Shown here piece after piece: positions 50,089 to 56,015 of a DNA stretch of 64,000 nucleotides. How positions within the stretch are numbered: position 1 is the first letter of the stretch; the number at the start of each line of letters is the position of its first letter. The position numbers were made by a program, and so were the translations under genes. The stretch is from assembly GCF_024170465.1 (NCBI RefSeq), contig NZ_JALJYF010000002.1, forward strand, positions 620,001 to 684,000, written 5' to 3'. This DNA comes from Natronospira proteinivora. Lineage in GTDB: Bacteria; Pseudomonadota; Gammaproteobacteria; Natronospirales; Natronospiraceae. Under the pieces are notes generated by a model. The model was given only the letters and a program-made list of their open reading frames with translations, was not told the origin of the DNA and did no database searches.

Positions 50089-50697
50089 TTAGAGGGGGAG
50101 TTCTATCCGCCAGTACTGCTCGGGATCGCCCTCCAGTTTCCACAATAATCTAACTGCCCGAATTCGCTTAACGATAGACTGGAAAAATCGACCTTTTAGG
50201 AAGTCAATTTTTGCCATGTAAGTTAATCCATAGACATAACCGCTATCCCATGCCTGCTTAAACATCTTACTTGCATAATCGATATCCTTATCCATGCATC
50301 TTCCTTCCATCGCCATCCTTCCCAGGTGGAAAATAGCTCTAGGATCCTTGGACTCCTCTGCAAGCAGCCGGCAATAAGCGACCGCTTTCTCGCAGCTAGC
50401 CATCCCGCCAAAACCATAAAAATAAATTTTAATTAACTCATAGTATGAGCAAAGAACATCGCCTTCAGACGCAGACCGTTCGTAACACTCGACTGCCAAA
50501 CCCACATCCTGCGGAACATCATTAGATCCGATCAGATAAACTTTACCCAAAACGGAGAGGACAAAAGGATCATTTGTATCGCAGTTGGCCATAATATAAT
50601 TATATGCCCAAGAAACCTCGCCGCGCTCCAACGCCTGAATTGCTGGGCCCACATCATTAGTTGAACTACGTCTACTCACCGCTTCGCCCTTTGGCAT
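50089..50697 (-). CDS. Sel1-like repeat protein, probable immunity protein to Rhs tip B
   Basis: 202 residues built of Sel1/TPR-like helical pairs: LSVLGKVYLIGSNDVPQDVG, YYELIKIYFYGFGGMASCEK, AIFHLGRMAMEGRCMDKDIDY and AYGLTYMAK-like units. No signal peptide, so it should act in the cytoplasm. It starts (ATG 50697; a TTG lies one codon earlier) 11 bases after the stop of the Rhs tip B, the usual place of an immunity gene. Sel1-repeat proteins are known partners of several polymorphic toxins. Codon use is AT-richer than the Rhs core beside it. Confidence 0.7.
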   Translation of the reverse strand: MPKGEAVSRRSSTNDVGPAIQALERGEVSWAYNYIMANCDTNDPFVLSVLGKVYLIGSNDVPQDVGLAVECYERSASEGDVLCSYYELIKIYFYGFGGMASCEKAVAYCRLLAEESKDPRAIFHLGRMAMEGRCMDKDIDYASKMFKQAWDSGYVYGLTYMAKIDFLKGRFFQSIVKRIRAVRLLWKLEGDPEQYWRIELPL

Positions 50698-50708
50698 CAA
50701 TCGCGACT

Positions 50709-52486: not shown

Positions 52487-52972
52487 TTATTTCATTTTAA
52501 ATTCATGGCCGTTAACGAAAATAGCGCCCTCCTCAACACGATTGATGTAGACTGACTCACCGAGTTCACGGCCACTAATAAGTTTACATGCCTCCCGATC
52601 CACCAGATCAATCTTATAGAATGACTCGTCACTGTAGACTTGAGATGTCGTAACATAAAGGAAATCCCCAGACTTCGACCATACCATCTGTTTAACATCA
52701 GTCATCCAAGCCCCTTCCTGCCAAAAACGATTACCCAATGACCAATCTGTATCTGTCTCGACTGGCCCTGCAGCAGGTCTAGTTAGTATGATACCAATCT
52801 GGGTTCCTAGCGCATCATCGCAAAACACGAACACAGAGAAATCCGACCCTTCTGGATGCTCATGCAGCCCGCTTTGGCAATCAGTTGAAGCTAGCTGAAC
52901 AACCTCACCTTTAGCATATGAACTCGTTGAAAAGATCAACAGGAAAATAGTTACCGCCAGTATCGATTTCAT
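52487..52972 (-). CDS. Exported protein, probable immunity protein to Rhs tip C
   Basis: 161 residues with a clear signal peptide (KSILAVTIFLLIFSTSSYA). The mature part is a beta-rich domain with two Cys (STDCQSGLHEH and FVFCDDA) that may pair, plus a third in REACKL. It starts one base after the stop of Rhs tip C. An exported immunity protein fits a toxin that works on peptidoglycan in the periplasm, as the C tip is predicted to. No named family recognised. Confidence 0.7.
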   Translation of the reverse strand: MKSILAVTIFLLIFSTSSYAKGEVVQLASTDCQSGLHEHPEGSDFSVFVFCDDALGTQIGIILTRPAAGPVETDTDWSLGNRFWQEGAWMTDVKQMVWSKSGDFLYVTTSQVYSDESFYKIDLVDREACKLISGRELGESVYINRVEEGAIFVNGHEFKMK

Positions 52973-52973
52973 A

Positions 52974-54058
52974 TTATCGAATCACCGTTATATTCTGAAT
53001 AGGATCTCCACCATAATGCAGCTCATGTATTTTCTGCATCGCATCATCGGATGTCCTTATGCATCCATTGGTCGAATAATCTATTCCGCACTGGTTAGCC
53101 AGGTCACACTGCCCTTCTCTTCCAGAATGCACCCCCATCCCCTGTCGATCCGGAACTTCAAAAATAAAATTCCCATATGAGCCGAATGGGTCACTTGGGC
53201 CACTACCAGAGTGTGGGCTATGCCATGAAAACTCGAACACGCCCTCCGGGAAAGGCCCAGCACTAGAGCTCTGTGCGTTATTGGCTGCGGGATAACTCTC
53301 ACTTTCACCGGAGCTTGAAATTATTGTCAATACTCCAACATGATCATCATATATTAAGGATGACAATCCAAAAGGATCGATTCGATTTATCGGATCATTT
53401 AGCACATACCCATAAAGATTCAGATCGCCCCCAGCAAACCCAACCGGATCTCGAGCAGTCCAACGCCCATTCCGGGGATCATAATCCCGGTAGCCGAAGC
53501 GAATGAGCCCCGTATGCTCGTCGTTCAGCCCGCCCGCGAATCCAAACGGTATGCTGAATTCTGGATTGCTGTCCTCAATGACATTCCCATAGGCATCGTA
53601 CTGGATTTCGCGGATGACTTCTCCGCTTGAGTCCACAATCGCCCTAGGACTCCCCAGGTGGCTAGCCAGGATGTAGTACGTTTCCCCATCCTGCGTAAAC
53701 CGGCTGGGCGTATGCCCGACGGTGTACTCAAACCGCTGTTTCAGATTCCCATCACCGTCGTAAGTCGCCAACAGCGTGGTCTTGTCCTGCCAGAGATAGT
53801 ATTCCACCACCTCGCCGTCGACGGACTTGGAGACACGGTTACCCAAAGCATTGTGCTGATACTCAATATGATGCTCTGGGGTGATGACTTGTTTCAGCCG
53901 GCCCTGGCTGTCATAGCTGTACTCCGTGACCTGGCCATCAGCGTGATGTTTTTTGCTGAGGCGGCCGTTGCCGTCGTACTCGTAGCTGACGTCGCCATCG
54001 GCCGTTTGGCGGCTTTGGAGTTGATCGGCCAGGTTGTACTGGGCGGTTTCGTTGTTGA
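52974..54058 (-). CDS. Orphan Rhs tip C with L,D-transpeptidase-like toxin domain
   Basis: Rhs homology begins near 54058 without a start codon (first usable start TTG 53846, giving 290 residues) and stays in frame to RDYDPRNGRWTARDP and VLNDPINRIDPFGL. The tip of about 130 residues resembles a YkuD/Tlde1 L,D-transpeptidase. It has a substrate-strand region with GPFPEGVFEFSWHSPH, then GMGVHSGR with a conserved His. YSTNGCIRTSDDAMQKI follows, with the catalytic Cys in the [S/T].GC.R motif, and DPIQNITVIR at the end. It is predicted to attack or alter peptidoglycan cross-links in the target periplasm. A TGA lies just upstream in frame, so it is silent on its own. Confidence 0.85.
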
Positions 54059-54267: not shown

Positions 54268-54630
54268 TCAATCACTAAACCGAATATAACCGATCGAAGG
54301 GGTCAAAAAGTATGGCTCATACTTCACCCAGAACATATGATCCAGACCCGAATCGCGGTACAGCGTTAACTCTCTCTCTATTCCATTTATTGTTAAAACG
54401 ACTTCGAAAGCCTCTTGAGGGTGGGTTCCCGCATACTTAAATTGCGACATTCCTTTAAGCGCAGACAGCACCTGATCCTCACCATAAGGAAATCTCGGGT
54501 CTAGCTTAATTTGCTCAGTCGACTCTATATTTTTTGATATATACCTTGCCGTAGTGATTTGCATTGCCAATGCAGATCCTATGCATAAAAACGTGAAGCC
54601 TATAGCGAAAAACCACTTTGGCCCACCCAT
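54268..54630 (-). CDS. Small membrane-anchored or exported protein, possible immunity protein to Rhs tip D
   Basis: 120 residues: an N-terminal hydrophobic helix (WFFAIGFTFLCIGSALAM, signal peptide or anchor), then a mixed domain (DPRFPYGEDQVLSALKGM, EAFEVVLTINGIERELTLY, MFWVKYEPYFLTPSIGYIRF). AT-rich codon use. The start is ATG 54630, three bases after the 38-residue gene. Co-transcribed with tip D and that small gene, so it is a candidate immunity factor in the periplasm or membrane. Confidence 0.6.
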   Translation of the reverse strand: MGGPKWFFAIGFTFLCIGSALAMQITTARYISKNIESTEQIKLDPRFPYGEDQVLSALKGMSQFKYAGTHPQEAFEVVLTINGIERELTLYRDSGLDHMFWVKYEPYFLTPSIGYIRFSD

Positions 54631-54633
54631 GAA

Positions 54634-54750
54634 TCACTTTTTCAAACCACTTGCAATAATTACGAATCCACTCCAAACCAAGAGTGGGAACATAATTATA
54701 ATAATGACGACTGCTAGCCAAATGTATAACGTCTCGAAAATATCAATCAC
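54634..54750 (-). CDS. 38-residue membrane peptide in the tip D cassette
   Basis: GTG 54750 overlaps the stop of Rhs tip D by 8 bases and opens 38 codons, ending 3 bases before the next ATG. The peptide is one long hydrophobic helix (LYIWLAVVIIIIMFPLLVW, then SGFVIIASGLKK) with an acidic start and two C-terminal Lys. The tight overlap and membrane pattern argue that it is translated. It could be an immunity component or part of a two-gene partner. Confidence 0.55.
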   Translation of the reverse strand: MIDIFETLYIWLAVVIIIIMFPLLVWSGFVIIASGLKK

Positions 54751-55747
54751 AAGTAGAGCCTCGTCGCATCAACCTTTTAACTCTCTCCCAAGTCTCTCTT
54801 GGGTTAAACACGAAGACATTATATGTCCTCGTAGCGTATGTGGAGACGCCCGGCGTGCCAAACCCAAGTGATGCCTCACTGTAAACCCCTTCGTAACGAC
54901 CTTCTTCGCCACCACCCACGACCAATCCAGATGCAACGCCCGGACCCGCTGGCAAACGTGCATTCGCTCCACTTTGGGCACCGATACCCCCTAACTCGGT
55001 AACTTCGACTGCATTTGTATACTCTGTGCTGAGCGACATTGAAGCTTGGGGTGGTGTCCCGCCAGCACCACCTCCTATCTGAAAGGCTATATTTCCATCT
55101 GAATCTCTCACGAAGCCAGAGCGAACTGTAATTCCCTTACCCAATCCCAAGTTCCCGTTCAAGTGAACTCCAACAGTACTCAACCCTTTCGGATTAAAAT
55201 AATTGATCGGGTCCCGCAACACATATCCATAAAGATTAAGATCCCCACCAGCAAACCCAATCGGATCCCTGGCCGTCCAACGCCCAGTCCGCGGATCATA
55301 ATCCCGATAGCCAAATCGAATCAGCCCCGTATACTCGTCGGTCAGGCCACCCGCGAATCCAAACGGAATACTAAACTCTGGATTACTGTCTTCAATCACA
55401 TTCCCATAGCTATCGTACTGGATTTCTCTCAGCACTTCGCCGCTTGAGTCCACAATCGCCCGCGGACTGCCCAGATGGCTAGCCAAGATGTAATAGGTCT
55501 CCCCATCCTGGCTAAACCGACTGGGCGTATGCCCAACGGTGTACTCAAAGCGCTGTTTGAGGTTTCCGTCGCCATCATAGGTCGCCAACAGCGTAGTCTT
55601 GTCCTGCCAGAGATAGTATTCCACCACCTCGCCATCGACGGACTTGGAGACACGGTTACCCAAACCATTGTGCTGGTACTCAATATGGTGCTCTGGGGTC
55701 GTTACCGATTGCAGCCTGCCCTGGCTGTCATAGCTGTATTCAGTCAC
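54743..55747 (-). CDS. Orphan Rhs tip D with Gly-rich C-terminal module
   Basis: 334 residues from GTG 55747. Rhs homology continues in frame to about 56003 but is cut by a nonsense codon at 55832-55834 (TAA where the other copies have CAA). The 5' end is a chimera of two YD repeats (IIFPDGQSLENRYDA joined to NGNRVQTTSTARGV). After RDYDPRTGRWTARDP and VLRDPINYFNPKGL, a ~140-residue tip is rich in Gly and Ser (VGVHLNGNLGLGKGITVRSG, IGGGAGGTPPQASMSLST). It ends in a basic helix (ETWERVKRLMRRGSTCD). Its activity is not recognised; the beta-rich glycine pattern could suit a membrane- or surface-acting module. Confidence 0.82.
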   Translation of the reverse strand: MTEYSYDSQGRLQSVTTPEHHIEYQHNGLGNRVSKSVDGEVVEYYLWQDKTTLLATYDGDGNLKQRFEYTVGHTPSRFSQDGETYYILASHLGSPRAIVDSSGEVLREIQYDSYGNVIEDSNPEFSIPFGFAGGLTDEYTGLIRFGYRDYDPRTGRWTARDPIGFAGGDLNLYGYVLRDPINYFNPKGLSTVGVHLNGNLGLGKGITVRSGFVRDSDGNIAFQIGGGAGGTPPQASMSLSTEYTNAVEVTELGGIGAQSGANARLPAGPGVASGLVVGGGEEGRYEGVYSEASLGFGTPGVSTYATRTYNVFVFNPRETWERVKRLMRRGSTCD

Positions 55748-56015
55748 CTGGCCGTCAGCGTGGTGCTTTTTGCTGAGGCGGCCATTGCCGTCGTACTCGT
55801 AGCTGACTTCGCCCTCGGCCGTTTGGCGGCTTTAGAGTTGGTCGGCTAGGTTGTACTGGGCGGTTTCGTTGTTGACGCCGCGGGCGGTGCTGGTGGTTTG
55901 TACGCGGTTGCCGTTGGCGTCGTAACGGTTTTCCAGGGACTGGCCGTCCGGGAAGATGATCCGGGTGATGCGGTCCCGCTCGTCGTACTCGTAGGCGGTG
56001 ATCCACTAGCAGTAG

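What the first reader, a model, noticed from the sequence alone, without database searches (positions are those of the whole stretch)
54268..55190. Tip D is followed by an overlapping 38-residue membrane peptide and a small exported protein
GTG 54750 overlaps the Rhs stop and encodes a single hydrophobic helix of 38 residues that automatic annotation would miss. An N-terminally hydrophobic 120-residue protein starts 3 bases after it. A two-component, membrane-located partner suggests that the Gly-rich tip D attacks the membrane or envelope.
Basis: partly seen in the sequence, partly recalled or inferred. Interest (0 to 1): 0.6.

Follow-up and report, generated by a model that had tools for sequence, protein, structure and literature searches.

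The report
Rhs toxin cassette with split immunity
This is a silent spare toxin module of a bacterial Rhs system; the two 'small membrane genes' behind the toxin most likely are one membrane-anchored immunity gene cut in two by a stop codon, and the toxin itself is predicted to fold into a small glycine-rich barrel that probably damages bacterial membranes.

Summary
The coordinates are right. On the minus strand a 38-codon GTG frame (54750-54634) overlaps the Rhs stop by 8 nt, and a 120-codon ATG frame (54630-54268) follows 3 nt later. Read through, they give a 160-residue protein: helix out-to-in, short basic loop, helix in-to-out, periplasmic domain. Homologues with this architecture (two gammaproteobacterial genomes, ten Vibrio plasmids) are single uninterrupted ORFs. 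Rhs immunity genes usually start within about 25 nt of the Rhs stop; the 38-codon frame fits this, the 120-codon frame does not. Best reading: one membrane-anchored immunity gene split by a nonsense codon in an orphan Rhs cassette that also has a stop in its Rhs remnant. A two-gene, translationally coupled reading is not excluded. Tip D belongs to a small Rhs-tip family (Mariprofundus, Sulfurovum, Pseudoalteromonas and another zetaproteobacterial genome), every member followed by a membrane protein. A relative's model (pLDDT 84) best matches the Rhodococcus equi Vap barrels (Z up to 9.6), which are membrane-active proteins; there is no sequence match to Vaps. Membrane attack is supported as inference; 'two-component partner' is not favoured.

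The parts
55205..56004 (-). Rhs-core remnant of the orphan cassette: two pieces homologous to the main rhs gene (56004-55904 to main 58824-58724; 55924-55209 to main 57991-57276), with an in-frame TAA at 55834-55832
   Evidence: self-blastn 98% over 101 bp and 88.5% over 716 bp; TEN_YD-shell, Rhs_assc_core
54743..55180 (-). Tip D toxin domain (145 aa after ...NPKGL) and stop; Gly-rich, predicted 8 beta strands with a helix between strands 4 and 5 and a C-terminal helix
   Evidence: family alignment with L007/L043, L044, L045, L085; models; fold matches
54634..54750 (-). 38-codon frame: N-terminal transmembrane helix (N-out, basic C-end) of the immunity protein, or a separate small peptide gene
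54634..54636 (-). TGA that separates the two in-register frames
   Evidence: search hits report '1 TGA' inside the match
54268..54630 (-). 120-codon frame: second hydrophobic helix and periplasmic domain of the immunity protein
   Evidence: homologous to L093, L096 and Vibrio plasmid proteins, profile E 4.7e-8 alone and 2.6e-9 for the read-through

Best explanation
The segment is an orphan (silent) Rhs toxin-immunity cassette. Tip D is a Gly-rich beta-barrel toxin domain that becomes deliverable only if recombination joins it to a full-length rhs gene; it then acts on the target cell's membrane (most likely by making the inner membrane leaky). The two small frames behind it are one immunity gene: a 160-residue inner-membrane protein with a helical hairpin and a periplasmic domain that would intercept the toxin at the outer face of the inner membrane, now split by an in-frame TGA. 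Shown: positions, register, uninterrupted homologues, membrane partners in the relatives. Inferred from models: barrel fold. Inferred only: toxicity, membrane leak, neutralisation.
For: Register and single TGA. Homologues of the read-through product are uninterrupted two-helix plus domain ORFs: L093 (150 aa), L096 (209 aa) and ten Vibrio plasmid records; a profile built without the window finds the read-through at 2.6e-9, with hydrophobic segments at matching places. Position rule: in roughly two thirds of 73 Rhs loci the downstream ORF starts at -26 to +20 nt of the Rhs stop; the 38-codon frame starts at -8, the 120-codon frame at +112. Orphan status: core remnant homologous to the main gene, with its own stop, as described for Salmonella (PMC3967940). 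Membrane action: partners of all four relatives of tip D have two transmembrane segments. Fold: relative L044 modelled at pLDDT 84; best matches VapD 4csb Z 9.6 (105 aligned, 2.9 A), VapB 7b1z Z 9.6 and 4cv7 Z 8.9, VapG 5aeo Z 8.0, next OmpX Z 6.1. Vaps have a helix between strands 4 and 5 (PMC4089522), as in both tip models. Vap proteins bind and permeabilise liposomes, VapA most strongly, and VapA collapses proton gradients (PMC10100859).
Against: Helix 1 alone does not score above shuffles against the homologue profile, so its homology rests on architecture. The 120-codon frame could by itself encode a signal-peptide protein (SALA before M23). The model of tip D itself is weak (pLDDT 60), and its best matches are next-neighbour outer-membrane barrels, not Vaps. 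No sequence match to Pfam R_equi_Vir or to any PDB chain at a significant E-value. The window's partner is of a different family from those of the tip relatives. Nothing experimental.
Confidence: 0.52

Rival explanations
1. Two genuine, translationally coupled genes: a 38-residue membrane peptide and an exported 120-residue protein that together form a two-part immunity.
For: GTG with a good Shine-Dalgarno sequence; stop and restart 3 nt apart suits coupling; the second ATG has a poor one; the 120-residue product begins like a Sec signal peptide (sequence). Precedent: ExiC and ExiD, two membrane proteins needed together against the membrane-depolarising toxin EsxX (PMC12744356).
Against: Uninterrupted homologues with the same architecture; the frames are in register; no relative of tip D was seen with an intact separate small peptide gene.
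Confidence: 0.2
2. The 38-codon frame is not translated and the 120-residue protein alone is the periplasmic immunity protein.
For: 9% of shuffles keep this frame open; the 120-residue protein has its own ATG and a signal-peptide-like start.
Against: Hydrophobicity of the frame (4 of 20,000 shuffles), start position and ribosome-binding site, helix 1 in all homologues; the ATG lies 112 nt from the Rhs stop.
Confidence: 0.12
3. Tip D does not breach membranes; it is a soluble barrel that binds or modifies an envelope target (avidin- or lysozyme-inhibitor-like), and the partner sits in the membrane only to intercept it in the periplasm.
For: VapB has a packed core without a pore and resembles avidins (PMC4089522); avidin-like rows appear; the tip has no 19-residue hydrophobic stretch.
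Against: Vap proteins disturb lipid membranes although they are compact soluble barrels (PMC10100859); partners with two transmembrane segments recur in the relatives.
Confidence: 0.28
4. The whole module is dead: both toxin remnant and immunity gene are decaying and nothing is made.
For: In-frame stops in the core remnant (55834-55832) and between the two small frames; an in-frame TAG also lies between two long Rhs-locus frames just outside the window.
Against: The tip domain itself is open and conserved with relatives; orphan modules are normally unexpressed until recombination (PMC3967940).
Confidence: 0.3

Closest known systems
Orphan rhs-CT/rhsI modules of Salmonella and Dickeya (PMC3967940, PMC3150448)
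   Same: Displaced Rhs-core fragment with a new tip and a small partner gene downstream of a full-length rhs gene
   Different: No export or toxicity shown here; stops in the remnant and between the partner frames; the genome has no detectable T6SS sheath gene
Rhodococcus equi Vap proteins (Pfam R_equi_Vir)
   Same: Predicted Gly-rich eight-stranded barrel with a helix between strands 4 and 5; fold match Z up to 9.6 for relative L044
   Different: No sequence-level match; here the domain is the tip of an Rhs protein with a membrane partner, not a free secreted protein
Tse5-CT/Tsi5 of Pseudomonas aeruginosa (PMC9637101)
   Same: Rhs tip that acts on the cytoplasmic membrane, with a two-helix membrane immunity protein
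   Different: Tse5-CT is predicted helical and membrane-spanning; tip D is predicted mostly beta without a hydrophobic helix
EsxX/ExiCD of Staphylococcus aureus (PMC12744356)
   Same: Membrane-active toxin countered by membrane proteins, there a pair
   Different: Glycine-zipper toxin, type VII secretion, Gram-positive; here one split gene is more likely

Membership tests
Orphan Rhs toxin-immunity module | Fragment homologous to the core of a full-length rhs gene upstream | tested here: met
   88.5% over 716 bp and 98% over 101 bp
Orphan Rhs toxin-immunity module | Fragment lacks its own export signal and 5' part | tested here: met
   Remnant begins at about 56004, next to the preceding immunity gene, and has a stop at 55834-55832
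Orphan Rhs toxin-immunity module | Partner gene directly after the tip | tested here: met
   GTG 54750 overlaps the Rhs stop
Orphan Rhs toxin-immunity module | Tip toxic, partner protective | not testable with these tools
   Needs expression assays
Two-helix plus periplasmic-domain membrane family (L093, L096, Vibrio plasmids) | Sequence similarity along the periplasmic domain | tested here: met
   2.6e-9 read-through, 8.3e-8 domain alone, profile made without the window
Two-helix plus periplasmic-domain membrane family (L093, L096, Vibrio plasmids) | Two hydrophobic helices before the domain | tested here: met
Two-helix plus periplasmic-domain membrane family (L093, L096, Vibrio plasmids) | One uninterrupted ORF | tested here: not met
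   TGA at 54636-54634
Vap family (R_equi_Vir) | Sequence match to the family profile | tested here: not met
   (in one search no control genome rang; HMMER filters drop weak hits)
Vap family (R_equi_Vir) | Eight-stranded barrel with a helix between strands 4 and 5 | tested here: inconclusive
   Present in AlphaFold2 models (at pLDDT 60; at pLDDT 84); match Z up to 9.6; strand order 41238567 not examined
Vap family (R_equi_Vir) | Gly-rich last strand followed by Trp | tested here: inconclusive
   Gly-rich GxGTP stretch in the family; a Trp follows in tip D, L007 and L085 but not in L044 or L045
Tse5-like pore-forming tips | Membrane-spanning helices in the tip | tested here: not met
   Best 19-residue mean 0.71; mostly beta models

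The most novel reading that the evidence does not exclude
The Vap barrel fold, known from free Rhodococcus equi virulence proteins that disturb lipid membranes, also serves as an interchangeable antibacterial tip of Rhs proteins, paired with membrane-anchored immunity proteins.
Probability: 0.4. Interest if true: 0.7.

Novelty: new variant of a known kind. Interest (0 to 1): 0.42.

Why it matters
It replaces a claimed hidden 38-residue gene by a testable split-gene reading, and it gives a rare uncharacterised Rhs tip family a candidate fold and target. If the Vap-like fold is right, the origin and mode of action of Vap proteins, whose exact way of disturbing membranes is unresolved, could be studied through a toxin-immunity pair.

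Tried and rejected
Close homologues of the cassette: none in the own genome beyond itself, plasmids, phages or 369 genomes of the class; weak hits L002-L004 are unrelated proteins. Exact-peptide scan of genome contigs with the tip alone: nothing; anchoring the query on the Rhs-core end worked. Other Gly-rich Rhs tips (L009, L019, L078, L060) looked similar by eye, but profile comparison gave no support (probability about 1%), so they are treated as analogues only. Homology between the window's partner and the partners of the tip relatives: none. A special RNA structure at the stop-restart site: none (z 0.37). A promoter inside the cassette: none on the minus strand. Sequence match of the tip to Pfam, NCBIfam, PHROGs or PDB: none of note. 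An indel sequencing error as the cause of the split is unlikely, because the register is kept on both sides; a substitution error cannot be excluded.

Full report
What is there. The finding lies in a minus-strand rhs locus. The main rhs gene (56828 upward) is followed by its 271-aa partner (56831-56016) and then by several cassettes, each a core remnant, a tip and a partner. The tip-D cassette has a core remnant made of two pieces of the main gene (98% over 101 bp, 88.5% over 716 bp) with an in-frame TAA at 55834-55832, a 145-residue tip (55180-54746), and then the two small frames. This is the anatomy of orphan rhs-CT/rhsI modules, which usually lack initiation and export signals and are expressed after recombination with the main gene (PMC3967940; PMC3150448).

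The small frames. The coordinates given are exact. The 38-codon frame starts at GTG 54750, eight bases inside the Rhs frame, with GAGG eight bases upstream; the 120-codon frame starts at ATG 54630 without a good ribosome site. The two frames are in the same register, with only TGA and TTC between them. A hydrophobic open frame of this kind over the gap is rare in shuffles (4 of 20,000), so the 38 codons are very probably coding sequence. Charges put helix 1 N-out/C-in (MIDIFET...GLKK) and helix 2 N-in/C-out (MGGPK...), which makes a hairpin followed by a periplasmic domain; this is inference from the sequence.

One gene or two. The read-through product was searched as one protein. It matches uninterrupted proteins in two gammaproteobacterial genomes (L093, L096), and L093 leads to ten Vibrio plasmid records at 58-59% identity to it. 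In two of these looked at, the gene sits among unrelated small genes, not next to an rhs gene; the genome neighbours of L093 and L096 are also not rhs. A profile built from the homologues only finds the read-through at 2.6e-9 against 8.3e-8 for the domain alone; helix 1 alone does not beat shuffles, so for helix 1 the evidence is architecture and position. Of 73 Rhs loci, roughly two thirds have their downstream ORF starting between -26 and +20 of the Rhs stop; the 38-codon frame at -8 fits, the 120-codon frame at +112 does not. The simplest reading is one immunity gene with a nonsense codon. Two coupled genes remain possible: EsxX is countered by a pair of membrane proteins (PMC12744356).

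The toxin side. Tip D has no match in the family libraries or by sequence in the PDB. Queries anchored on the Rhs-core end found L007 (the same locus as L043, Mariprofundus UBA1536; 40-41%), L044 (Sulfurovum, 40%), L045 (Pseudoalteromonas denitrificans) and, by profile, L085 in another genome of the Mariprofundus class on a different carrier. Shared features are many glycines and an NAxxVxDLxG-like motif. Their partners begin between 1 nt before and about 16 nt after the tip stop and carry two transmembrane segments each; L045's partner is itself out of frame in that draft genome. These partners are not homologous to the window's partner.

Fold. Tip D was modelled poorly (pLDDT 60) as eight strands with a helix between strands 4 and 5, best matching small outer-membrane barrels. 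The Sulfurovum relative was modelled well (pLDDT 84); its four best matches are Vap proteins of Rhodococcus equi (Z 9.6, 9.6, 8.9, 8.0), clearly above the next row (OmpX, 6.1). Foldseek itself gave no match at E up to 0.001. Vaps have an unusual barrel with a helix between strands 4 and 5 (PMC4089522) and a Gly-rich surface (PMC4118825); the family's conserved motif falls at that helix in the models. Vap proteins bind and permeabilise liposomes, and VapA collapses proton gradients (PMC10100859). A membrane-leak mechanism for tip D is therefore a reasoned inference, not shown. The domain is not filed as a Vap, because the sequence-profile test was not met.

Verdict. Observation confirmed. Interpretation partly supported: membrane partner and membrane target yes, two-component partner probably no. 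The main gains are the split-gene reading, the tip family with its membrane partners, and the possible Vap-like fold.

Noticed in passing
L104 2864-2862 (own genome C2:685861-685863, outside the window): An in-frame TAG separates a long upstream frame with a signal peptide (1148 codons stop to stop, HCBP_related domain) from the 3010-codon frame of the main rhs gene; either two genes or an interrupted one.
   Followed up: partly
52487-53846: Neighbouring cassette: tip with an L,D-transpeptidase (YkuD) domain (E 3.5e-5) followed by a 161-aa protein that starts like a signal-peptide protein, as expected for a periplasmic toxin.
   Followed up: no
50089-50700: 203-aa partner of another tip looks like a Sel1/TPR-type repeat protein (by eye only).
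   Followed up: no
L009, L019, L078: Another Gly-rich Rhs tip family is followed by a protein with one N-terminal helix; in L009 it weakly matches Coa1 (Pfam E 8e-4, below the curated cut-off).
   Followed up: partly
L045 3538-3827: The partner of the Pseudoalteromonas relative of tip D is also broken into two frames (out of register) in that draft genome.
   Followed up: no
own genome C1:1423548-1429751 (L038): A second rhs array with several Rhs-core/tip ends lies elsewhere in the same genome.
   Followed up: partly
L101, L102 (Vibrio plasmids): Stand-alone members of the window's immunity family sit among unrelated small genes in cassette-like regions, as orphan immunity genes might.
   Followed up: partly
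own genome: No T6SS VipA/TssB gene was found, so the route of Rhs delivery in this organism is open.
   Followed up: partly
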